21,263 nucleotides of DNA from a virus. The translations under genes and the position numbers were made by a program. The notes below the pieces were generated by a model that was given only the letters and a program-made list of their open reading frames with translations, had not been told where the DNA came from and did not search any database. The stretch is taken from positions 1-21,263 of IMG/VR virus record IMGVR_UViG_3300027631_003017; one strand, written 5' to 3'. Shown here one piece after another: positions 4,872 to 17,065 of the stretch; within the stretch, counting starts at the first letter, position 1; each line of letters opens with the position of its first letter.

Positions 4872-5147
4872 TTAACTCTTTTTATAAGTTCCGCCTCTTT
4901 GTTTATAAAGGCGAACCAAAGCTGCAGATCCATAAGCAGAAGGCCAAATTTTAAATTTCTTCTTTACTTCTGATTTACAACGAGAATAAAGTTCTGGATC
5001 ATTAGGAACATTATTTTTCTTTGCTGGTTTCTTCTTTGCTATCTTTACAAATACATCTTGTAAATCATTAGCAACAACAATATTTCCATCATTTTCCAGT
5101 AATGTAATGATATGATTTAAATCATTGAGTAAGTTATTAGTATCCAT
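4872..5147 (-). CDS. Small phage protein: N-terminal tag plus WPSAYGSAALV domain
   Basis: 91 residues in two parts. Residues 1-38 are a clear N-terminal tag (LLNDLNHIITLLENDGNIVVAN, then LQDVFVKIAKK). Residues 48-91 (LYSRCKSEVKKKFKIWPSAY, then GSAALVRLYKQRGG) are a short conserved domain widespread in phages and large DNA viruses, of unknown function. It is the first gene of the 5147-2841 operon. Its leader ends AAATAAGTATG, identical to the leader end of the nitrilase gene at 19779, and no clear Shine-Dalgarno is present. The pairing of a common tag with a short basic domain supports a virion or assembly role, which is inference. Confidence 0.8.
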   Translation of the reverse strand: MDTNNLLNDLNHIITLLENDGNIVVANDLQDVFVKIAKKKPAKKNNVPNDPELYSRCKSEVKKKFKIWPSAYGSAALVRLYKQRGGTYKKS

Positions 5148-5233: not shown

Positions 5234-5743
5234 ATGAACAGAGTATTATTACTTAATTTGGATTATGAACCTTTAAATATTTGTGATTTGCCTAGAGCTA
5301 TTAAATTGCTTATAAATGACAAAGCAGAAACATTACATTATAAGGATCATAAATATTTTTATTCTGGTAATGGTGATCGCTACTCAGTTCCTTCTGTCAT
5401 AAGATTAAAACACAATGTCCGCCGTAAACATAACACCAGCTTTAAAGTTAGTAGAGGTGGAATTTATGGCAGAGATAATTACACATGTCAATATTGCGGT
5501 ATTAGAAATATTGATTTAACTTTAGACCATGTTTATCCCAGGCATTTAGGTGGAAATCATACTTGGGATAATCTTGTCACTTGTTGTAGATCCTGTAATA
5601 TCAAGAAAGCTGGAAAAACGCTAGAAAAAAGCGGAATGAGACTACTTTCTAAACCTAACCTGCCTGTATATTCTTTTTATCATTTATTGTGCTCATATAA
5701 AGAAAAAGATAGCGAATATTGGGACTATTATTTGGTGAGATAA
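5234..5743 (+). CDS. HNH endonuclease
   Basis: 169 residues. Residues 85-88 (CQYC) and 118-121 (CRSC) give the two zinc-binding CxxC pairs. Residues 97-99 (LDH) supply the catalytic His, and W111-N113-L114 is the usual HNH 'WDNLV' segment, so all signature residues are present. The N-terminal 80 residues (VLLLNLDYEPLNI...RAI.LL..DKAE) match the extension of the common stand-alone bacterial/phage HNH family. Members are free-standing nucleases, some linked to packaging or homing. There is no sign of a surrounding intron. It has its own consensus promoter and ends in a strong terminator, so it is a monocistronic cassette inserted between two minus-strand operons. Confidence 0.92.
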   Translation: MNRVLLLNLDYEPLNICDLPRAIKLLINDKAETLHYKDHKYFYSGNGDRYSVPSVIRLKHNVRRKHNTSFKVSRGGIYGRDNYTCQYCGIRNIDLTLDHVYPRHLGGNHTWDNLVTCCRSCNIKKAGKTLEKSGMRLLSKPNLPVYSFYHLLCSYKEKDSEYWDYYLVR

Positions 5744-5783: not shown

Positions 5784-6590
5784 CTATTCAAAATCATAGT
5801 CGCCGAGTTTTTCTCTTTGTAGTCTATCAACTGTATATGTTCTTACCATTGATAAATGGAATAATTCATCTTTCAAATCAGCCATAGTTTCTGGTATTTC
5901 AGTAGCTTTGAATGATGAATTGCTAACAAAGATAAATTCATCATCACCATACATTTCAGGCAATGACATTCCTTCTTCTTTTGCATCCATTAAAGACACT
6001 GCGACAGGAGCAACAGATATTTCCATCTCTCTACCGGCTCTTTTATAATGTTCAGCTATAACTCTTCCAAAACCATATGCATCAGATTCAGAAGAAAAGA
6101 CTAAATCTTTACCTTTGACATCTAAAATGTTTTCATTGATCATTAACAAGAATCCGAAATCACCAATATCTTCTATTCCGGAAGCTAAAGCATCTTCTAA
6201 TTCTTGAGTTTTGCGAGCATCTGATTCTGAACGCACCCATTCAACAATTAAAATATTTACTGGTATTCTGACAATTGTTAGATTTTCTAAACCAGTCATA
6301 GCTTTAACTTTTCCTCTTATTTCAGGAAGATCTTGATCAAAAGGTAAAGCTGCTAAATATTTTCCTTCATGCATTACTGGTTGATTAGTGGCAGCATTAA
6401 AAAATACAGGTGTCGGATGAATTATCTCATGAGGAGTATTGTCATCATCTTCTAAATCATCTTCGTCATCGTAATTTTCTTCATCATCTTGTGTTTGTGA
6501 TAAAACCAAGTTAAAAATATAATCTGATCTTTTATATTGACCAGTCTTATCTAAATTTGATGCTAGTTTAAGGTATTGCTTGTAATTCAT
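5784..6590 (-). CDS. Unknown phage protein with N-terminal tag and acidic linker
   Basis: 268 residues. Residues 1-35 are a typical copy of the recurrent N-terminal tag (YLKLASNLDKTGQYKRSDYI, then FNLVLSQTQD). A strongly acidic linker follows (EENYDDEDDLEDDD, about residues 37-50), then a mixed alpha/beta domain of about 210 residues that I do not recognise (for example TIVRIPVNILIVEWVRSESD and a conserved-looking GFGRVIAEHYK). There are no cysteines and no membrane segment. The arrangement tag, flexible linker, domain suggests the tag acts independently of the body. An 87-base gap separates it from the GIY-YIG gene. TAGAAT lies six bases before its ATG and could be a -10 box of a leaderless promoter. 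Confidence 0.8.
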   Translation of the reverse strand: MNYKQYLKLASNLDKTGQYKRSDYIFNLVLSQTQDDEENYDDEDDLEDDDNTPHEIIHPTPVFFNAATNQPVMHEGKYLAALPFDQDLPEIRGKVKAMTGLENLTIVRIPVNILIVEWVRSESDARKTQELEDALASGIEDIGDFGFLLMINENILDVKGKDLVFSSESDAYGFGRVIAEHYKRAGREMEISVAPVAVSLMDAKEEGMSLPEMYGDDEFIFVSNSSFKATEIPETMADLKDELFHLSMVRTYTVDRLQREKLGDYDFE

Positions 6591-6677: not shown

Positions 6678-7379
6678 TCAGCCGTCAAGATTGTCTTTAT
6701 CACAAATAGGGCAGGTATATCTTGGTCTGTTTAGAGCATTTTGGATATATACTTTTTTATCTGTTTTATTTTCATAAGGCTTAGATATGTTAATCAAACA
6801 ATACCCTGCACATGAGCCTTTTGAAAAAGTTTTATCTTGATTACTGATGAGAGTTTGATAATTGAGATTATTTTGTTCACAATATGTTCGTAAATTTAAT
6901 GCACTCAATTCAATAACATCATTATTTGGAGTTATCAAATGGTATAAAAATTTGGCATTTAAAATACTTCTAGATTTAGCACCACCTTTTGCATGCCATT
7001 CTTTTCCATATTTTTCAATTATAGCTTTACCGCCTTTTTTACCGGCATTACTTTGATGTTCTAAAAATGATTTATAATCATTTTGTTTCATTTCTTTCAA
7101 ATGATTTCCGCCGCCAAATGCCATATTGTAGGAATTTTTATCATTTACAACTTCAGCATTTACAACTTTTCTTTCGAGATCCCAAAGCTCTTCTGTAGTT
7201 TCGCATTGATATAAAATTTCTTTACTGAAATTTTCTTTGCCATATTTATTGATTGCATTGATAATTCCAATGCCACTCCCAAAATAATCATCATTTATAT
7301 TATCTGTTGAATGTCTTCCAATATAATATTTACCATTGATATTGTTAGTAATTTTATATAAATAATGAAACTTTCTCAT
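6678..7379 (-). CDS. GIY-YIG family endonuclease (putative homing endonuclease)
   Basis: 233 residues. The N-terminal catalytic module is clear: YLYKITNNINGKYYIGRHST carries the two short strands of the GIY-YIG fold (here YLY...YIG) with the following Arg, and the catalytic Glu is probably in the LERKVVNAEVV helix around residues 70-78. Y-F-G-S-G (residues 32-36) is typical of phage members. The C-terminus ends with CPICDK, half of a zinc ribbon, which may indicate a partial or degenerate DNA-binding tail. Its ATG overlaps the upstream stop by one base (TAATG), so it has inserted tightly into an operon of small tagged proteins, as free-standing homing endonucleases often do. The DNA target is not identifiable. 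Confidence 0.9.
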   Translation of the reverse strand: MRKFHYLYKITNNINGKYYIGRHSTDNINDDYFGSGIGIINAINKYGKENFSKEILYQCETTEELWDLERKVVNAEVVNDKNSYNMAFGGGNHLKEMKQNDYKSFLEHQSNAGKKGGKAIIEKYGKEWHAKGGAKSRSILNAKFLYHLITPNNDVIELSALNLRTYCEQNNLNYQTLISNQDKTFSKGSCAGYCLINISKPYENKTDKKVYIQNALNRPRYTCPICDKDNLDG

Positions 7380-7966
7380 TATTTACCCTTAAGATTGTCA
7401 GATACAGATCTCCCAGCTTCCCAATTGCGACATGACCACCAACGAGCTTTCCACTTTTTACCTGGATTGTCACAATTATGCCTGGCTCTGAAATTTTTTC
7501 TACGTTCTGGGTCGTCTCTTTTAATTTCCATGTCTGGCGAGCCAAAATTAACCTTAATGATATTACCCTTATCGTTCTTTACATAAACAGAGAACTTTTT
7601 AGGACCACCCGGAGTTCTGAAAGGCTTGTTTAGTTTCTTGCCATCATTTTTAGCAGCTGTTTTCTGACCAACAGTTTCTTCGCTGACTAAATAATCAGAG
7701 ACACCTTTTAGCATTTGAACAGCATTAGAAATTTTAGACTGTACCCAAGCCATCAAATTCCCTTCGCCATCTTCGCCCACTACATCTTCAATGCCTTCAA
7801 TAGCTCTTTTAGCAGTTTCCATTTCATTTCTGACCATATCGTATTCATGGTCCCAATCTTCATTAGCAAATTTGTTCATTGCTAAAGTAATTTTATCTGC
7901 TAATCTATGAGCACTATTATTATCTAATTCTAATGCTAAATCTGCTAAATCTTCAATAGTAGCCAT
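7379..7966 (-). CDS. Tagged phage protein with RARHNCDNPG/WWSCRNW C-terminal motif
   Basis: 195 residues. Residues 1-35 are an N-terminal tag (IEDLADLALELDNNSAHRLA, then DKITLAMNKFANED). The middle is helical. The C-terminal 75 residues carry a motif I recognise from many T4-like and other large phages: KFSVYVKNDKGNIIKVNFGS, DPERRKNFRARHNCDNPG and KARWWSCRNWEAG. The His/Cys pattern suggests a small metal-binding fold. I associate this motif with head or assembly-related phage genes, though its function is not established. The start follows the upstream stop directly, with CGGAAG as ribosome site, so the gene is cotranscribed with 7967-8269. The GIY-YIG endonuclease sits directly downstream. 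Confidence 0.82.
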   Translation of the reverse strand: MATIEDLADLALELDNNSAHRLADKITLAMNKFANEDWDHEYDMVRNEMETAKRAIEGIEDVVGEDGEGNLMAWVQSKISNAVQMLKGVSDYLVSEETVGQKTAAKNDGKKLNKPFRTPGGPKKFSVYVKNDKGNIIKVNFGSPDMEIKRDDPERRKNFRARHNCDNPGKKWKARWWSCRNWEAGRSVSDNLKGK

Positions 7967-8269
7967 TTATTCTTCCGATCTAAGCATTTCTTCCGCTTCA
8001 GAAAGATTTTTTGCTTTTACTTGTTCTAATTCTCTAGCTAACTGTTGAGCTTTGAATTGGCCATCAACATAATAATTTTCTCTAAAGTTTTGCCAACCTT
8101 CATTTTTAGCAACATTATTAAGTGCATGAGCCATGGCAAGATAATCAACATCTTCGTTTTTATCAAAAATTCCGGACAGTCTCTTCATTACAGAAGTGAT
8201 TTCATTCGCTTCCTTGTACATACCATAATTATCTAAATCGTTAGCAATAGAAGCTAATTTATTAAGCAT
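7967..8269 (-). CDS. Small helical protein with N-terminal tag
   Basis: 100 residues. The first 36 (LNKLASIANDLDNYGMYKEA, then NEITSVMKRLSG) are one of the clearest tag copies. The remaining 60 residues are predicted helical and charged (ALNNVAKNEGWQNF, ARELEQVKAKNLSEAEEMLR), with no recognised domain. A good Shine-Dalgarno (TTGGAGATTTAGAA before ATG) makes this the first gene of the minus-strand operon 8269-6678. It may be a small assembly or internal virion protein, from context only. Confidence 0.78.
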   Translation of the reverse strand: MLNKLASIANDLDNYGMYKEANEITSVMKRLSGIFDKNEDVDYLAMAHALNNVAKNEGWQNFRENYYVDGQFKAQQLARELEQVKAKNLSEAEEMLRSEE

Positions 8270-10436: not shown

Positions 10437-11709
10437 TTGGGGTATTACTGGTGGAGGATGGGGAGATGTATTTGTTTCCCTGTCCAATGCTAAAAGAAGA
10501 AACATTAGAAATATTATTCTTTTAGGTCCATTTCCAGAACTAAAAGAATTTATTTTAGCTCAAGATTTCGTTGATAATTGTGAGCATTATTTATTCACAC
10601 CCGCAGAATCTATTTATTGGCAGAGTTTTGTAAATCTATGTTCTCCTTGGAAAACAGAAACACAAATAAAAGAATACAAAGTTTATTTTAATTTGCCACA
10701 AGATAGAGAATATACATCAATTCAATTAAGTGTATCTGGCGGTGAAGATTTATCATTATTAGACACATATAATTATTCATCAAGAGCTTATGAATATTTA
10801 CCAGATTACGAAGATTTTATTTTATTTCAACCATCTTCTAATCATTCCACTCCTGATGAAAATAAATGGAAATATTGGCCAGAATTTTTAAATGAAGTAT
10901 GTGAATTTTTCCCTAATAACAAAGTAATTTTAATCGGTCAAGGTAATCAGGGATATAATGATATAAAGTACCCTAATTTCATTAATTTGAGGGATAAATT
11001 CAGTAGTGCGGAAGGTGTAGCTTTATTTGCAGAGAAGGCTAAGTTGATTATCACTTTACCAAACAACTTAATCTATTGGTTACATGTAAAAAATAAACCA
11101 GTAATAAGTATCTCTAATAAAGAATTTAACTTATTGTCTCCTTTTAAAAGATTATTAATCAAGCCTACTTTAATAGATCTTGAATTTGATGTCACTTATG
11201 AAGATGCGGTTAATACACTTCATAACTGGGAAGCATTAGTTAACAGAGATAGAAAAGAAATAACTTGTCCTTATAAATTTATATCTAAATTTACTATGAT
11301 TAATCAGCATACAGTTAATGATTTATATAGTAATAAATCTAGTATGTCAATATACAGAAATATAATGTTAGATAATAAGGATGTTGATTGGTTTTTCTTT
11401 AGTGAAATTGATATCAAATATTTATATAGTGTTTTGAATATATTAGGTGGTAATTTCGAAGTAGGAGTTACGCTTAATGAAACACTTATGGAACAATATA
11501 ATAATTTAGAAAAATATTTAGTTTTAAGAAAATATGGCGCAGTGAAGAATCCTTTTGTCATATGTAGTAAAGCTAATTTAGAAAGTGTTTTAGCTGCAAA
11601 TGTTATCGGTTTTATTTGTATTGGTGATAATATCTATAGTCATTCGTTGCAAGAATATGAAGTAGTTAGATACCAGGAGTTTATGCATGGAAGAAGAATT
11701 AAAAATTAA
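10429..11709 (+). CDS. GT-B glycosyltransferase-like protein (GT9/heptosyltransferase-like) with unknown C-terminal domain
   Basis: 426 residues. The first 35 residues (NWGITGGGWGDVFVSLSNAK, then a RNIILLG strand) resemble the glycine-rich first loop of ADP-heptose-type GT9 enzymes (G.GD....). The middle (DFILFQPSSNHSTPDENKWK, then YWPEFLNEVCEFFPNNKVIL, IGQGN, then LFAEKAKLIITLPN) matches the C-terminal Rossmann half, where the nucleotide sugar binds. Residues about 285-426 (from SSMSIYRNIMLDNKDVDWFF on) are an extra domain I do not recognise. A role in modifying host surface glycans or phage DNA/virion sugars is possible; the substrate cannot be told. It overlaps the preceding gene by 8 bases and the Fe-S carrier gene by 23. 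Confidence 0.6.
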   Translation: MDNWGITGGGWGDVFVSLSNAKRRNIRNIILLGPFPELKEFILAQDFVDNCEHYLFTPAESIYWQSFVNLCSPWKTETQIKEYKVYFNLPQDREYTSIQLSVSGGEDLSLLDTYNYSSRAYEYLPDYEDFILFQPSSNHSTPDENKWKYWPEFLNEVCEFFPNNKVILIGQGNQGYNDIKYPNFINLRDKFSSAEGVALFAEKAKLIITLPNNLIYWLHVKNKPVISISNKEFNLLSPFKRLLIKPTLIDLEFDVTYEDAVNTLHNWEALVNRDRKEITCPYKFISKFTMINQHTVNDLYSNKSSMSIYRNIMLDNKDVDWFFFSEIDIKYLYSVLNILGGNFEVGVTLNETLMEQYNNLEKYLVLRKYGAVKNPFVICSKANLESVLAANVIGFICIGDNIYSHSLQEYEVVRYQEFMHGRRIKN

Positions 11710-12067
11710 TATTACCGAAGCAGCATCTGAAGAGATCATTTCTATTATGGAGTCACATCCTGATATGGAATTATGTGTCAGATTAGGTGTATCGGCTGGT
11801 GGTTGTGCTGGATATAAGTATCATTTAGGCTTAGAAGAATTCGTACCTGAAATTGATGATATTATTTTAGATGACAAAATCAAAATAGTTGTCAATACAG
11901 ATATTATGAAAATAGTCAACGGATCTGAAATTGATTTTATTAAAGACCAAAATGGATTTAAAGTTACTAATCCTAATATGAAAAAAGGATGTGGCTGTGG
12001 TCAATCTTTTAGCGTTGGGGGAGATTCATCAGGTTCTAGCGGTTGTGGAAGTTGTGGAAACTTTTAA
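11687..12067 (+). CDS. A-type iron-sulfur carrier (HesB/IscA/ErpA family)
   Basis: 126 residues. The three ligand cysteines of the family are in place: C40 (AGGCAGYKY) and the pair C102/C104 (KKGCGCGQSF). The alternating strands INITEAASEEI, LCVRLGV and IKIVVNTDIM between them fit the fold. These small dimers bind Fe-S clusters or iron and deliver them to apoproteins. The family usually stops soon after CGCG.SF; here an extra Gly/Ser-rich tail adds a second pair, C120/C123 (SSGCGSCGNF). AGGAG seven bases before the ATG at 11687 decides the start, inside the end of the upstream gene. It is followed by a terminator and faces the SOD/Dps-like operon. Confidence 0.92.
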   Translation: MEEELKINITEAASEEIISIMESHPDMELCVRLGVSAGGCAGYKYHLGLEEFVPEIDDIILDDKIKIVVNTDIMKIVNGSEIDFIKDQNGFKVTNPNMKKGCGCGQSFSVGGDSSGSSGCGSCGNF

Positions 12068-12071
12068 ATAA

Positions 12072-12097
12072 TAAAGGCCCCTTTTATGGGGCCTTTA
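12072..12097. terminator. Bidirectional intrinsic terminator
   Basis: A 10-bp perfect stem TAAAGGCCCC (12072-12081) pairs with GGGGCCTTTA (12088-12097) with a TTTTAT loop, between the convergent Fe-S carrier and Dps-like genes. Confidence 0.92.
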
Positions 12098-12099
12098 CT

Positions 12100-12468
12100 T
12101 TAGCTGAGTGTAAGTAAATATTTCAGTTTATTTAGCTCTGCGGACATTTCATCTCTAATATTCATGAGATCTGTATCCTTAGCAGTATCTAGACCATTTA
12201 CTAAAGGTCCCATAAGATAATCTAAAAATGCTTCAATGAATTTAGTAACATCTTCATCGCCATTTAGATTTCTAAGAGTGATGGTAAAGTTATTCTGTGC
12301 TTTTAACATACCATTCTTACCTTGGAACACTTCGATAAATTGATCAATAAGCAATGTTAGAGCATCATAAGCTCCACCAAATGCCATATGAGCAGCGTAA
12401 GATCTAGTTTGCCAATGATAAACTTTAAGTTGATTATGTAAAGTTAATAGATTTGTAATAAGATTCAT
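12100..12468 (-). CDS. Dps/ferritin-like small protein
   Basis: 122 residues, shorter than Dps (about 160-170). Residues 10-48 carry a Dps-like metal signature: H11, HW at 18-19 (LKVYHWQTRSYAAH), H27, D42 and E46. The H27-D42 (15) and D42-E46 (4) spacings equal those in the E. coli Dps ferroxidase site (H63, D78, E82), whereas HW to the next His is 9 instead of 12. The same LK.FHW.T.SYA.H pattern occurs in small ferritin-like proteins of phages and large DNA viruses. Likely roles are iron binding, peroxide detoxification or DNA binding; oligomer size is unknown. It is the last gene of the SOD operon, 2 bases after the upstream stop. Confidence 0.72.
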   Translation of the reverse strand: MNLITNLLTLHNQLKVYHWQTRSYAAHMAFGGAYDALTLLIDQFIEVFQGKNGMLKAQNNFTITLRNLNGDEDVTKFIEAFLDYLMGPLVNGLDTAKDTDLMNIRDEMSAELNKLKYLLTLS

Positions 12469-12470
12469 CT

Positions 12471-12995
12471 TTATTCCATTCCAAGAAGATCTTCTGAATC
12501 TTCCATATTTTCTTCTAGAAGACTTAATGCTGCTTTCATAGTTTCAGGACCAACAGCACCATCTGGAGTAATACCATGAGCTTTTTGGAAGTTCTTAGTA
12601 ACAAGCATAGTAGATTGTCCAAAACGTCCATCATCATCTAGTCTGCCATCAAAGTGGTCATTGAGGAATCTTTGCCAATTTCTAACGCCAGATCCAGCAA
12701 CATTAATTCTCATGCCCATACCTAATCTATAACCATGTTCTGCCATTTGATTAAGAATATCTTGTTTATCCTTAGCTTTGTCCATAGTGTCCTTAACTAA
12801 AGCCCCAGCACCACCGGCCATTCCAAGACCAGCAGCCCAATTAACACCTTTAGATAAAAAATCTTTTCTAGACATATCTGCTTGAGCTACTTTTTCAAAT
12901 ACTTCTTGTACCTGAGATGCTAAAGTATATTTACCCTTTGATTCTAAAGAATTGATAACATTGTTTAGATTATTTAATGTTGCAATACGATCCAT
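12471..12995 (-). CDS. Tagged peptidoglycan-binding domain protein
   Basis: 174 residues. Residues 1-38 are the best copy of the N-terminal tag (LNNLNNVINSLESKGKYTLA, then SQVQEVFEKVAQ). Residues about 48-65 are Gly/Ala-rich and mildly hydrophobic (NWAAGLGMAGGAGALV) and might touch a membrane. Residues about 100-160 form a PG_binding_1-type domain (VRNWQRFLNDHF, DDDGRFGQSTMLVTKNFQKA, then HGITPDGAVGPETM), which binds cell-wall peptidoglycan in hydrolases and virion proteins. No catalytic domain is attached. A tagged wall-binding protein fits an internal virion or tail component acting during genome entry, which is inference. It lies 1 base after the SOD stop, with CGGAG as ribosome site. Confidence 0.85.
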   Translation of the reverse strand: MDRIATLNNLNNVINSLESKGKYTLASQVQEVFEKVAQADMSRKDFLSKGVNWAAGLGMAGGAGALVKDTMDKAKDKQDILNQMAEHGYRLGMGMRINVAGSGVRNWQRFLNDHFDGRLDDDGRFGQSTMLVTKNFQKAHGITPDGAVGPETMKAALSLLEENMEDSEDLLGME

Positions 12996-12996
12996 A

Positions 12997-13677
12997 TTAT
13001 TCTCCGTTATATTTTTTTGAAATAAAGTCCCAATTTACTACTTTAAACCAAGATGTAATGTATTTCTCTCTATTATTCTGATATTTGAGATAATATGCAT
13101 GTTCCCATACGTCACATCCCAAAACAGGAATCCCACATTTTTCAATGTATGGATTAGATTGATTATCAAAACTTTGTATTTTTAATTTACCATCATTAAC
13201 ACAAAGCCATACCCATCCAGACCCAAAATGCTTGACTCCCGTTTCAATAAATTCTTTTTTAAACTTATCAAAACTTCCAAACTGTTTATCAATATTATCT
13301 GCAAGTTTTCCAGATGGTTTTTGATTCATTTCAGGGGACATTGTAATCCAGAAATAAGAATGGTTAAAATGACCACCAGCATTATCTAAAAATGCTTCTT
13401 TATCTTTTACATCTTTAGGATCTTGTAATAATTCAACTAAAGTCTTATCACTGTTACCAAGAAGCTCATTCATTTTATCTACATATTTTTTATGATGTTT
13501 GTCGTGATGTAATTTCATTGTAGCTGCATCAATAACAGGCTCTAATGCAGAATGAGAATATGGTAATTTTGGTAATTCAAGTCCGAAATCATGATCTTCG
13601 CTTAATGATTTGAATATTTCTTTTACTTTTTTGGAAGTTCTAATATTTTTATCATAAAAAGTAATGTAATCGATCAT
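12997..13677 (-). CDS. sodA: Superoxide dismutase, Mn/Fe family (Mn-type features), N-terminally extended
   Basis: 226 residues. All four metal ligands align with E. coli MnSOD: H57 (LHHDKHH), H106 (NHSYFW), D189 and H193 (CDVWEHAYY). H61 and Y65 match second-sphere H30/Y34. G102 (GGHFNHS) and Q173 (DNQSNPY) are the Gly/Gln pair typical of Mn rather than Fe enzymes. It would convert superoxide to peroxide and oxygen. The normal enzyme begins around residue 32 (LELPKLPYSHSALEP); the first 31 residues are an extra helix-forming extension ending VKEIFKSLSED, not a signal peptide, and they resemble the ends of the window's N-terminal tags. It overlaps the upstream stop (start at 13677) and is followed 1 base later by the peptidoglycan-binding gene. 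Confidence 0.93.
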   Translation of the reverse strand: MIDYITFYDKNIRTSKKVKEIFKSLSEDHDFGLELPKLPYSHSALEPVIDAATMKLHHDKHHKKYVDKMNELLGNSDKTLVELLQDPKDVKDKEAFLDNAGGHFNHSYFWITMSPEMNQKPSGKLADNIDKQFGSFDKFKKEFIETGVKHFGSGWVWLCVNDGKLKIQSFDNQSNPYIEKCGIPVLGCDVWEHAYYLKYQNNREKYITSWFKVVNWDFISKKYNGE

Positions 13678-14117
13678 TAGCTTACTCCAACCATAACTGG
13701 ATTTGTATCGGCTGGTGGGGTAGTAGGGATACTAAGATTAGTTATACCAGTAATATCAATAGCTGGATGTAAACCTGTAGCTGGATTAACATTGCCTACT
13801 CCACAAGCTAATATTTGTGTAACAGTAGGATCCATGCCGTTATTTCTCATCCATTGTGCTAGATCTTGTTCAGCGATACTAGTTCCACCAACATCAAAAT
13901 ATTCTACACCATTAGAATAGTTGCCATGTAATACTAAGAATTTTTTACCATCTGTTGTAGTGAATTGGTATGGCTGATGTGAATCTAAGGACTTTTTAAT
14001 ATTTTGTGCTGTAGGATAATCGACAGAAAATCCAGCATTACCACCTCCAGAAACATGTGTCGGAGAGGTTGTGTCAGCTATATTTTGAAAATTTTGTTGA
14101 GCAATTTTATACCACAT
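13677..14117 (-). CDS. Unknown protein with short MWYKIAQ N-terminal tag
   Basis: 146 residues, family unknown. It opens MWYKIAQQ, related to the MSKWIKVSQ starts at 3290 and 4866 and to the KIAQ end of the longer tags. A Gly/Thr-rich segment follows, then a compact domain (PYQFTTTDGKKFLVLHGNYS, then VEYFDVGGTSIAEQDLAQWM, then ILACGVGN) and a Pro/Thr-rich C-terminus (NLSIPTTPPADTNPVMVG). It is the first gene of the SOD/peptidoglycan-binding/Dps-like operon and is divergent from thioredoxin reductase, with 66 bases between starts. No catalytic motif can be named. Confidence 0.72.
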   Translation of the reverse strand: MWYKIAQQNFQNIADTTSPTHVSGGGNAGFSVDYPTAQNIKKSLDSHQPYQFTTTDGKKFLVLHGNYSNGVEYFDVGGTSIAEQDLAQWMRNNGMDPTVTQILACGVGNVNPATGLHPAIDITGITNLSIPTTPPADTNPVMVGVS

Positions 14118-14168
14118 ATCTAAAAGTTCTTCTTTATTCTTATTATTTCCTACTGTTGCTAAGAATTT

Positions 14169-14176
14169 GGTACAAT
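14169..14176 (+). promoter_or_regulatory. -10-like element directly before trxB
   Basis: GGTACAAT, with TACAAT at 14171-14176, ends seven bases before the ATG at 14184. No Shine-Dalgarno and no convincing -35 are present. The spacing predicts a leaderless or near-leaderless transcript, as at 9501-9513. Confidence 0.45.
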
Positions 14177-14183
14177 ATTTAGT

Positions 14184-15104
14184 ATGGAAAATATCGCAAT
14201 TATTGGTAGTGGACCAGCTGGATATACAGCTGCCATCTATTGTTCTAGGGCTAATTTAAGTCCAGTGTTATATACAGGTTTTATGCAAGGTGGTCAATTA
14301 ATGAACACCACAGAAGTAGAAAATTACCCAGGTTTTAAGGATGGGATTTTAGGGCCAGACTTGATGAATGAAATGGAACAACAAGCATTAAGGTTTGGTA
14401 CTAGAATGATTTATCAAGATGTTTCAGAATTAGAAAAACAAGGTGATAAATTTTTAGTAACATCAGATGGAATTACTGAAGAATATAAATCTGTTATTTT
14501 TTGTACTGGTGCTTCTCCTAAATGGTTATCTGTGCCTGGAGAGTCTGAATTTTTAGGCAGAGGAGTTACATCTTGTGCTACCTGTGATGGATTTTTCTAC
14601 AAAGGCAAAAATGTAGTAGTAGTGGGTGCTGGTGATACTGCTATGGAAGAAGCCTTGTATCTTAGTAAAATCTGTTCTTCTGTTCAGCTTATTAATCGTT
14701 CCTCATCCTATAAAGCATCTAAAATTATGGTGAATAAGGTTTTCAATACAGAGAATATTACTGTGTATGAAAATACTGTAATCAAGCAAATTATTGGAGA
14801 TGATAAAGTAAATGCTGTGATCCTACATAATGATGTTCTTGAAAAAGAATCATTATTATCAGTAAGTGGTGTTTTTGTAGCAATTGGAAATATACCTAAT
14901 TCATCATTAGTGAAGCATTTTAACATTGTAGAATCTGATGGATATATTTCTACTGTTAACACAAAAACTAATATTCCAGGATTATTTGCTTGCGGGGATG
15001 TTGCAGATAAACATTATAAACAAGCAATAACATCAGCAGGTTCAGGATGTATGGCAGCTTTGGAGTCTGAAAGATATTTGCTTACTCAGACTGCGACCAC
15101 ATAA
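14184..15104 (+). CDS. trxB: Thioredoxin reductase
   Basis: 306 residues, normal length for the low-molecular-weight bacterial enzyme. FAD is bound by GSGPAG (8-13) and the C-terminal ATG-like motif with GLFACGDVAD. The redox-active disulfide CATC is at 131-134, and the NAD(P)H-binding GAGDTA is at 148-153. In E. coli the 2'-phosphate of NADPH is held by HRRDGFRA; here the equivalent is NRSSSYKA (171-178), so one Arg is Ser and another Lys, which may weaken NADPH preference. It would reduce thioredoxin or a glutaredoxin-like partner for ribonucleotide reductase or redox repair. No thioredoxin gene lies in the window. It is divergent from the SOD operon and overlaps the convergent gene at 15082 by 23 bases. 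Confidence 0.95.
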   Translation: MENIAIIGSGPAGYTAAIYCSRANLSPVLYTGFMQGGQLMNTTEVENYPGFKDGILGPDLMNEMEQQALRFGTRMIYQDVSELEKQGDKFLVTSDGITEEYKSVIFCTGASPKWLSVPGESEFLGRGVTSCATCDGFFYKGKNVVVVGAGDTAMEEALYLSKICSSVQLINRSSSYKASKIMVNKVFNTENITVYENTVIKQIIGDDKVNAVILHNDVLEKESLLSVSGVFVAIGNIPNSSLVKHFNIVESDGYISTVNTKTNIPGLFACGDVADKHYKQAITSAGSGCMAALESERYLLTQTATT

Positions 15105-16232: not shown

Positions 16233-16724
16233 CTAGTTTCTACCACCACCACCAAAGTTGTTACCATTCCCTCTAGATCTACCAAATTGATTGATGAACA
16301 AAATATTACCAAAAATACTCTGTAAATCAAATGGGTCGATATGATTAAACTTAATAACTTCCCAAGCAATAGAATTATTTTTCTGAGCCATTAATAAACC
16401 AGCATCAAAATCTGGATCTGGATTAGCTTCAATTTTAATTCTTCTTGCCTTTACAATCCATACATCATTTTCTTTAATATATGTAAGAGGAACTGTAGAA
16501 GCTCTCATCACTATCTTTAAAGAATTTTCAAATGGTATATCTGTGAGAGTGCATGTTACAAAGCCAGATACAGAATTATCAATAACATAATTTTTAATAC
16601 CAGCCTGTTTAAACATCATTTCAATTGTTGATCTGATAGGTGCTTCTTTTAAATCAACAGTAATATTTTGGCTATAAGATGGAATAGCACATAAGCAAGC
16701 TAAAAGAGCTAATAGTTTTTTCAT
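16233..16724 (-). CDS. Exported protein with secretin/TonB N-terminal (STN-like) domain
   Basis: 163 residues. Residues 1-18 are a signal peptide (MKKLLALLACLCAIPSYSQ, cleavage probably around SYSQ), so the product goes to the periplasm. Residues about 20-95 look like an STN/secretin short domain: ITVDLKEAPIRSTIEMMFKQ, AGIKNYVID, a SGFVTCTLTDIPFENSLKIV strand-helix and YIKENDVWIVKARR. In secretins and TonB receptors this domain docks inner-membrane partners; here the pore-forming domain is missing. The C-terminus is a low-complexity GRSRGNGNNFGGGGRN tail. Its ATG overlaps the stop of the similar upstream gene (ATGA), and GAGGT is the ribosome site. A role in modulating host secretion, pili or the envelope is speculation. 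Confidence 0.72.
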   Translation of the reverse strand: MKKLLALLACLCAIPSYSQNITVDLKEAPIRSTIEMMFKQAGIKNYVIDNSVSGFVTCTLTDIPFENSLKIVMRASTVPLTYIKENDVWIVKARRIKIEANPDPDFDAGLLMAQKNNSIAWEVIKFNHIDPFDLQSIFGNILFINQFGRSRGNGNNFGGGGRN

Positions 16725-17065
16725 TTCTTGACCTCTACATCATATATTTTATTTTTTCCAATAGACTGAATCTTAAATACAATATTATATTTAAATGACA
16801 AATATTCCATTGTTTCTTCAACAGTAAAACCGATAAAGCTAAAGTTTTTATGATCTACTTTTTCTAAGGATGAATCAATACTTTTATTTCTAATATTAGC
16901 TTGCTTGAAAAACCCTTCTACCACTTCTTTAGCATTTTTATAATATGTTGAATTAATGCTAATTAGGATCTCTTTCTTTGGCTTAGGAATATCTTGTGAA
17001 TAAGAATATTTACTTAAGGATGCGAATAGTAAAACAGTGAATAATATAGTTTTATAGAACTTCAT
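16721..17065 (-). CDS. Exported small protein, second STN-like paralogue
   Basis: 114 residues. A signal peptide occupies about residues 1-23 (MKFYKTILFTVLLFASLSKY, then SYSQ). The remaining 90 residues have the same layout as the next gene: a strand ILISINSTYYKNA, a helix VVEGFFKQANIRN, the short I-D-S-S loop, then F.GFTVEETMEYLSFKYNIV and a strand KNKIYDVEVKK. Compare MMFKQAGIKNYVID and IPFENSLKIV in the neighbour. The pair looks like a duplicated, diverged STN-like domain. A ribosome site AAAGGAC lies within the first codons of the divergent gene, whose start is only six bases away. Function is unknown. Confidence 0.65.
   Translation of the reverse strand: MKFYKTILFTVLLFASLSKYSYSQDIPKPKKEILISINSTYYKNAKEVVEGFFKQANIRNKSIDSSLEKVDHKNFSFIGFTVEETMEYLSFKYNIVFKIQSIGKNKIYDVEVKK

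What the first reader, a model, noticed from the sequence alone, without database searches (positions are those of the whole stretch)
16233..17065. Two exported STN-like (secretin N-domain) proteins encoded by a phage
Adjacent genes with overlapping ATGA both have signal peptides and short domains resembling the STN domain that secretins and TonB receptors use to contact inner-membrane partners, but no pore domain follows. They look like a diverged duplication. They might interfere with host type II/IV systems or TonB-linked transport, e.g. superinfection exclusion or receptor masking. The SYSQ signal-peptide endings hint at Bacteroidota.
Basis: partly seen in the sequence, partly recalled or inferred. 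Interest (0 to 1): 0.6.

Follow-up and report, generated by a model that had tools for sequence, protein, structure and literature searches.

The report
Phage-exported pair of pore-less secretin-like domains
Five related giant-phage lineages carry two small genes for exported proteins that keep only the docking domain of bacterial outer-membrane pores and receptors, probably so that the phage can occupy the host's own docking partners during infection.

Summary
Window 16233-17065 (-) encodes two exported proteins, A (114 aa, 16721-17065) and B (163 aa, 16233-16724), whose genes overlap by ATGA. The pair recurs in all five jumbo-phage lineages found.

B is a signal peptide plus a secretin-type N0/STN domain plus a short low-complexity tail, with no pore. 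Its best matches are PilQ (NCBIfam, PDB) and the pIV secretin (PHROGs). All 5 members score 36-50 bits on a secretin-N0 profile and 27-35 on a receptor-STN profile (decoys 6.3 or less).

A folds as N0/STN (model core pLDDT about 95; VIA-align Z 9.7 to InvG N0, 8.9 to PilQ N0 and a Bacteroidota FecR C-domain). Its sequence leans weakly to FecR_C.

No secretin pore was found in eight phage records. TrxB relatives suggest a Bacteroidota host; 120 of 247 sampled genomes of that phylum have a secretin.

Most likely function (inferred): free periplasmic docking domains that occupy host secretin or anti-sigma partners, as overproduced free receptor signalling domains are known to do. The target is unproven. 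I found no such phage pair in print.

The parts
16721..17065 (-). Gene A: exported 114-aa protein with one N0/STN fold, FecR_C-like by weak sequence similarity
16994..17065 (-). A: putative signal peptide, residues 1-24 (ends ...YSYSQ)
   Evidence: hydropathy and motif; cleavage site inferred
16724..16975 (-). A: N0/STN-fold domain, residues 31-114, beta-alpha-beta-beta-alpha-beta-beta
   Evidence: AlphaFold2 model
16233..16724 (-). Gene B: exported 163-aa protein, secretin-type N0 without pore; start overlaps stop of A (ATGA)
16668..16724 (-). B: putative signal peptide, residues 1-19 (MKKLL...SYSQ)
   Evidence: hydropathy and motif; cleavage site inferred
16440..16667 (-). B: N0/STN domain, residues 20-95
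   Evidence: PilQ N0 4ar0, TIGR02515, secretin-N0 profile
16275..16439 (-). B: residues 96-150, conserved I-x-x-x-x-IDPxDL-x(4)-G-x-IL block, possibly the first strand and helix of a secretin N1 domain
   Evidence: whole-protein secretin matches run into it, but it matches nothing on its own: weak
16236..16274 (-). B: Gly/Asn/Arg-rich tail, residues 151-163 (about 60-70 aa and Gly-rich in L005, L010, L011)
   Evidence: alignment

Best explanation
A and B are periplasmic docking-domain decoys made during infection. Shown here: the two genes are a conserved, adjacent pair in jumbo phages; both encode N0/STN folds without the pore or barrel that normally follows; B is of the secretin (PilQ) type; A is nearer to FecR_C. 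Inferred: Sec exports them to the host periplasm, where B (alone or with A) binds by the N0/STN surface to the inner-membrane partner that the host's own secretin or STN receptor would contact (a PilP/GspC-like protein, or a FecR-type anti-sigma factor). With that partner occupied, secretin-linked or TonB-receptor-linked surface functions fail. The benefit would be exclusion of other phages that use those surface structures, or silencing of host envelope signalling until lysis. A, being FecR_C-like, may be B's own partner, since STN and FecR_C domains form complexes in known systems.
For: B's only strong relatives are N0/STN domains. In each of 6 phage records the PilQ model matches once, at B, and covers only its first 71 to 116 of 428 positions. 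No secretin pore in 8 of 8 records and no TonB-receptor barrel in 5 of 5, so these are not parts of a phage-encoded pore seen on these contigs. Possible targets exist: 120 of 247 sampled genomes of the phylum have a secretin pore domain, and STN receptors with FecR next to them are common there. [quoted passage not shown] The isolated PilQ N0 domain binds the PilP C-domain (PMC3441751, passages). Phage-coded inhibitors of type IV pili for superinfection exclusion are known, though cytoplasmic (PMC11656802, passages). Purifying selection: dN/dS about 0.2-0.4 where dS could be estimated.
Against: No binding partner, host or phenotype was tested. B's own model was poor (pLDDT 36.8), so its fold rests on sequence. 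A's FecR_C similarity is weak: 2 of 5 members exceed all 1000 decoys and none passes Pfam's cut-off. The most conserved part of B in the five-member alignment is the last beta hairpin (PLTYxKENDVxIVK), not obviously the PilP-contacting face described for PilQ (first helix and strand). Half of the sampled phylum lacks a secretin. The contigs may be incomplete, so a pore gene elsewhere is not excluded.
Confidence: 0.4

Rival explanations
1. A and B bind mainly each other and form a phage-own envelope scaffold used in lysis or egress, a spanin-like link between membranes, and do not touch host secretins or receptors.
For: They lie close to the endolysin gene (CHAP domain in the window) in all five lineages; a two-gene overlapping cassette of exported proteins near the endolysin is the usual place for spanins (recalled); A and B resemble the two halves of a known interacting fold pair.
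Against: Neither has a second hydrophobic segment and no convincing lipobox is seen, so there is no obvious membrane anchor for a spanin; they are on the strand of the SOD side, opposite to the endolysin.
Confidence: 0.2
2. A is the free partner (FecR_C mimic) and B the free STN mimic of a cell-surface signalling system: the pair specifically rewires host sigma/anti-sigma signalling of SusC-type receptors rather than secretins.
For: A prefers FecR_C over the two other profiles in 5 of 5 members; structure hits to FecR_C 4m0h/4m0n and PupR; B also scores on receptor STN (27-35 bits); free signalling domains block signalling.
Against: B scores higher on secretin N0 in 5 of 5, and PilQ, not TonB receptors, fills the PDB sequence list. 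A's scores are weak.
Confidence: 0.25
3. A and B are virion-associated: their fold is the tail-hub (gp27/VgrG-like) domain, and the signal peptides act only after entry or are misleading.
For: Foldseek on BFVD lists many tail and hub proteins for A, and VgrG and tail proteins appear among the PDB hits; several neighbours look like virion proteins (judged by eye).
Against: Clear hydrophobic N-termini in 10 of 10; B's sequence is secretin N0, not hub; the hub resemblance is a known general resemblance of the fold (recalled).
Confidence: 0.1

Closest known systems
PilQ, type IV pilus secretin (N0 domain; 4ar0, TIGR02515) and pIV of filamentous phages (phrog_1012)
   Same: Signal peptide followed by N0; sequence match E 5.4e-8 (PDB profile), 1e-8, 1.3e-9.
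   Different: No N1 beyond a possible first strand and helix, no beta domain, no pore; only about the first quarter of the PilQ model is covered; encoded by tailed jumbo phages as a 157-218 aa protein.
STN signalling domain of TonB-dependent transducers (FpvA, FoxA, PupB, SusC-type)
   Same: Same fold and export; free exported signalling domains inhibit signalling (PMC11637429).
   Different: No plug, barrel or TonB box; B scores lower on this type than on secretin N0; no barrel in the phage contigs.
FecR/PupR C-terminal domain (FecR_C, PF16344)
   Same: A: VIA-align Z 8.9 and 8.7 to 4m0h/4m0n, best of three profiles in 5 of 5 members.
   Different: Single N0-like module, exported and soluble, no transmembrane or cytoplasmic anti-sigma part; below Pfam's cut-off.
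DotD, Xanthomonas VirB7 and BfpG: small envelope proteins with a lone N0-like domain
   Same: Lone N0-like domain on a small exported protein; A matches DotD (3ady, Z 6.2), VirB7 (6gyb 6.6, 2l4w 5.8) and the small chain of the BfpBG complex (9u5s, 6.5).
   Different: Those are parts of cellular secretion or pilus machines, some of them lipoproteins (recalled); A and B lack a clear lipobox and are phage-encoded. Z under 8 alone is weak.
Phage type IV pilus inhibitors (Tip, Aqs1, Zip)
   Same: Phage-coded blockers of a surface structure giving superinfection exclusion (PMC11656802, passages): what A and B may work like.
   Different: Those act on cytoplasmic PilB or PilZ; A and B are exported N0/STN domains.

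Membership tests
Secretin (PF00263/PilQ) | C-terminal pore (secretin) domain | tested here: not met
   0 of 8 phage records have PF00263 at E<=1; B ends after residue 163
Secretin (PF00263/PilQ) | N-terminal N0 domain | tested here: met
   TIGR02515 E 1e-8 over residues 19-138, 4ar0 E 5.4e-8, secretin-N0 profile 36-50 bits in 5 of 5
Secretin (PF00263/PilQ) | N1 domain after N0 | tested here: inconclusive
   whole-protein matches run to residue 138-147; the part alone matches nothing
STN (PF07660) | Pfam gathering score for STN | tested here: not met
   4 of 5 B members match at best E 0.0031; best 16.4 bits against cut-off 28.4
N0/STN fold | beta-alpha-beta-beta-alpha-beta-beta fold matching solved N0/STN domains | tested here: met
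   A: pLDDT about 90-96 over residues 31-114, Z 8.9 to PilQ N0 with rmsd 3.8 over 87 (2.4 over 76 in 4av2). B: by sequence only; its model was poor
TonB-dependent transducer | beta barrel after STN | tested here: not met
   PF00593 in 0 of 5 records
FecR anti-sigma regulator | FecR_C domain at Pfam cut-off | tested here: not met
   best 15.4 bits, cut-off 24.4; 2 of 5 A members at best E 0.025
FecR anti-sigma regulator | transmembrane segment between a cytoplasmic anti-sigma domain and the periplasmic part | tested here: not met
   110-122 aa with a hydrophobic N-terminus only
Spanin | membrane anchor (TM or lipobox) on each partner | tested here: inconclusive
   one hydrophobic N-terminal segment each; lipobox judged by eye only
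Sec-exported protein | signal peptide | tested here: met
   hydropathy in 10 of 10 and S-[YF]-[AS]-Q ending in 5 of 5 B; no SignalP available
Known anti-phage defence system | PADLOC model match | tested here: not met
   0 matches for A and B at E<=0.1

The most novel reading that the evidence does not exclude
Jumbo phages of Bacteroidota deploy a soluble, secreted STN/N0 plus FecR_C-like pair as a general jamming device for trans-envelope docking: one protein occupies the inner-membrane partners of secretins and STN receptors, the other caps the receptors' or secretins' own docking domains, shutting down surface machines and signalling at once. That would be a periplasmic counterpart of the known cytoplasmic phage inhibitors.
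Probability: 0.25. Interest if true: 0.75.

Novelty: new variant of a known kind. Interest (0 to 1): 0.47.

Why it matters
If A and B work as free docking domains, phages exploit the same trick that was built artificially in Pseudomonas (free signalling domains blocking cell-surface signalling), but in nature and possibly against secretins. It gives a directly testable pair, a new place (the periplasm) for phage takeover of surface machines, and ready-made reagents to ask which inner-membrane partners read N0/STN domains in Bacteroidota.

Tried and rejected
B in the annotated phage collection: no match; A from L011: no match. B in genome contigs by peptide patterns: 109 candidates, none confirmed. 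Further viral scans with the five-member alignments returned only contigs already known. AlphaFold2 for B gave pLDDT 36.8; its PDB search is therefore not used. The 'second half of B is N1' idea was tested alone and failed. It survives only because full-length secretin matches extend into it. A standalone bacterial homologue of B was sought in 296 genomes of the phylum: 14 had a match at E<=0.001, all inside long ORFs (703-1260 aa) and none standalone (only 10 candidates per genome were scored there). A frameshifted or split secretin was rejected: no pore in the window or related contigs. Relation of A to DUF7821 (E 0.00094, one of 5 members, below cut-off) is taken as chance. PADLOC: nothing. 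The A profile's local hits to FecR ORFs are mostly very weak: the best whole-sequence score is a sum of poor repeats, and only L116 has a single domain at E 0.0033. Two host probes by tblastn gave no clear host: the 307-aa protein matched nothing; the endolysin and the GP88-type protein matched phages of scattered hosts at under 60% identity. Shine-Dalgarno-like sites were counted upstream of 28 window ORFs (9 of 28, control 0), too few to say anything about the host. Literature for a phage STN/secretin-N0 pair: the searches listed none (one search listed 15 of 38 and 12 of 5,153 papers); that is the whole extent of the check. One search (pili in Bacteroidota) gave nothing used; two searches were used as listings only. 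Absence from fold lists is not used as evidence.

Biases to keep in mind: the secretin-N0 modules (35 from 16 ORFs) and receptor STN domains were cut out with B's own profile, and the receptor loci had been chosen for likeness to B, while 25 of the 26 secretin loci were chosen by their pore (the other, L121, by likeness to B). I dropped 4 of 19 receptor extracts (L114, L116, L122, L123, wrongly framed cuts) and 2 of 18 FecR candidates (L103, L126) before building profiles.

Full report
OBSERVATION. On the minus strand, gene A (16721-17065, 114 aa) is followed by gene B (16233-16724, 163 aa), sharing ATGA. The window is a 21,263-base viral record. Identical proteins occur on three other contigs (L002, 165.9 kb; L003; L004), and relatives on L005 (358 kb contig), L006 (300 kb), L011 (316 kb) and L010 (26 kb). 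In a profile search A and B are each the sole strong match in 5 of 5 records searched, side by side. The overlap is kept in 4 of 5 lineages; L011 has a 5-base gap. Neighbours are shared: the divergent endolysin (CHAP in the window) with small genes on one side, and a 179-180-aa protein, a superoxide dismutase and a small protein with a conserved HWQT motif on the other.

EXPORT. All ten N-termini are hydrophobic (11-residue maxima 2.4-3.8 against at most 2.02 later). All five B proteins start MKK and pass into the mature chain after S-[YF]-[AS]-Q. No SignalP was available, so export is well supported but predicted.

WHAT B IS. B matches PilQ in NCBIfam (TIGR02515, E 1e-8, residues 19-138), the pIV secretin family in PHROGs (E 1.3e-9; 5 of 5 members) and Neisseria PilQ N0 in the PDB (E 5.4e-8). 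Pfam STN itself is only weak (4 of 5 members, best E 0.0031), below the curated cut-off. Scanning six phage records with the PilQ model gives one match per record, always B, and only the first 71-116 of 428 positions. There is no secretin pore in 8 of 8 records (three of the eight are the window's own phage on other contigs) and no TonB-receptor barrel in 5 of 5. I built three local profiles from genomes of the Bacteroidota phylum: secretin N0 modules (35), receptor STN domains (15 of 19 kept) and FecR C-termini (16 of 18 kept). The five B proteins score 36.5-49.6 bits on secretin N0, 26.8-35.0 on receptor STN and about 0 on FecR_C; the best of 1000 shuffled decoys scores 4.6, 6.3 and 7.7. The modules were extracted with B's profile, a bias for both the secretin and receptor sets; the receptors were in addition preselected for likeness to B. 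Profile-profile comparison agrees (98.7% secretin, 97.7% receptor). Several of these secretins have three tandem N0 modules. After N0, B has a conserved IDPxDL block that could be the start of N1, but alone it matches nothing. It then ends in a Gly/Asn-rich tail of 13 residues here and some 60-70 in L005, L010 and L011.

WHAT A IS. No family passes its cut-off. With five sequences AlphaFold2 gives mean pLDDT 82.6, the 31-114 core at 90-96. Foldseek's first PDB rows are PilQ N0, a Parabacteroides FecR-type anti-sigma factor and VgrG1 (E 0.06-0.09, probability 0.95-0.99). VIA-align puts InvG N0 (2y9k Z 9.7, rmsd 1.9 over 72), PilQ N0 (Z 8.9), the FecR-type domain (4m0h 8.9; 4m0n 8.7, rmsd 2.1 over 72), MxiD, PupR and FpvA on top. 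Z of 7-8 can be a common arrangement by the tool's own note. Here nearly the whole top list is one fold family, which makes the N0/STN assignment sound, while tail-hub proteins share the fold too. By sequence A prefers FecR_C to the two other profiles in 5 of 5 members, but only 2 of 5 exceed all decoys (15.2 and 11.2 bits; the others 7.2, 5.9 and 0.6). In a Pfam FecR_C scan of 5 phage records, A is the best or second match in 3 of 5, all below cut-off. A and B may share a remote origin: the A profile finds B at E 0.03-0.04 in 2 of 5 records, with hhalign at 62.6%.

SELECTION. dN/dS is about 0.2-0.4 where dS can be estimated; two of the five A comparisons have saturated dS. Gene A of L010 is only 25% identical to that of L005, although their SOD is 90% and B 72% identical, so A has been replaced or has changed fast in that line.

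HOST. By their titles 76 of 80 are Bacteroidota, at up to 55% identity; the others are L035, L050, L067 and L101. Peptide patterns preselect the hits and the gene could be transferred, so the host is likely, not shown. In the phylum of G008 (a Sphingobacterium genome by the title of L022), 120 of 247 sampled genomes have a secretin pore, and the closest bacterial relatives of B in 296 sampled genomes are domains of long ORFs, none standalone.

MECHANISM. Shown: a conserved pair of exported N0/STN proteins without a pore. From the literature: exported free signalling domains of TonB-dependent transducers abolish cell-surface signalling by shielding the anti-sigma factor (PMC11637429, section 6), and PilQ N0 by itself binds the PilP C-domain (PMC3441751, passages). 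Inferred: A and B occupy such partners in the host. I give 0.4 to decoy action in general; the share between secretin partners and FecR-type partners is open, and A-B self-association is plausible. Superinfection exclusion is the likeliest benefit, by analogy with cytoplasmic phage pilus inhibitors (PMC11656802, passages). Rivals are a lysis scaffold, a signalling-only target and a virion role.

COMPARISON AND NOVELTY. The domain is well known; a phage that exports it alone, as a pair with a FecR_C-like partner, was not found in my literature searches. It works like a dominant-negative docking domain, but is not a secretin, not a receptor and not a FecR regulator by the tests listed. I rate it a new variant of a known kind.

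Noticed in passing
window 4872-5147, 5784-6590, 7379-7966, 7967-8269, 12471-12995 (all -): Five otherwise unrelated proteins share a similar N-terminal ~35-residue amphipathic helical stretch (LxxLAxxLDxxGxYxxAxxIxxVxxKxA); possibly a virion-delivery propeptide. A profile from these five finds L005 15265-15864 (homologue of 7379-7966) and little else.
   Followed up: partly
window 11687-15104: Redox and Fe-S cluster of genes: IscA/SufA-type protein (TIGR00049 E 1.3e-28), Mn/Fe superoxide dismutase, thioredoxin reductase (TIGR01292 over cut-off), and a small protein with an HWQT motif at 12100-12468.
   Followed up: partly
L010 7606-7965 against L005 7639-8004: Gene A is only 25% identical between two phages whose SOD is 90% and B 72% identical: allele replacement or very fast change.
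   Followed up: partly
L005 13152-13619 (-): Another exported-looking 155-aa protein (signal-peptide-like start, ends in ...GSFIL), possibly a small outer-membrane barrel.
   Followed up: no
L121 487-2571 (-), L128, L132: Secretins of the sampled phylum carry three tandem N0 modules before the pore.
   Followed up: partly
window 12471-12995 (-): Peptidoglycan-binding domain (PF01471) behind the N-terminal helical stretch, a possible virion or lysis protein.
   Followed up: no
window 5234-5743 (+) and 6678-7379 (-): HNH and GIY-YIG homing-type endonucleases interrupt the gene order.
   Followed up: no
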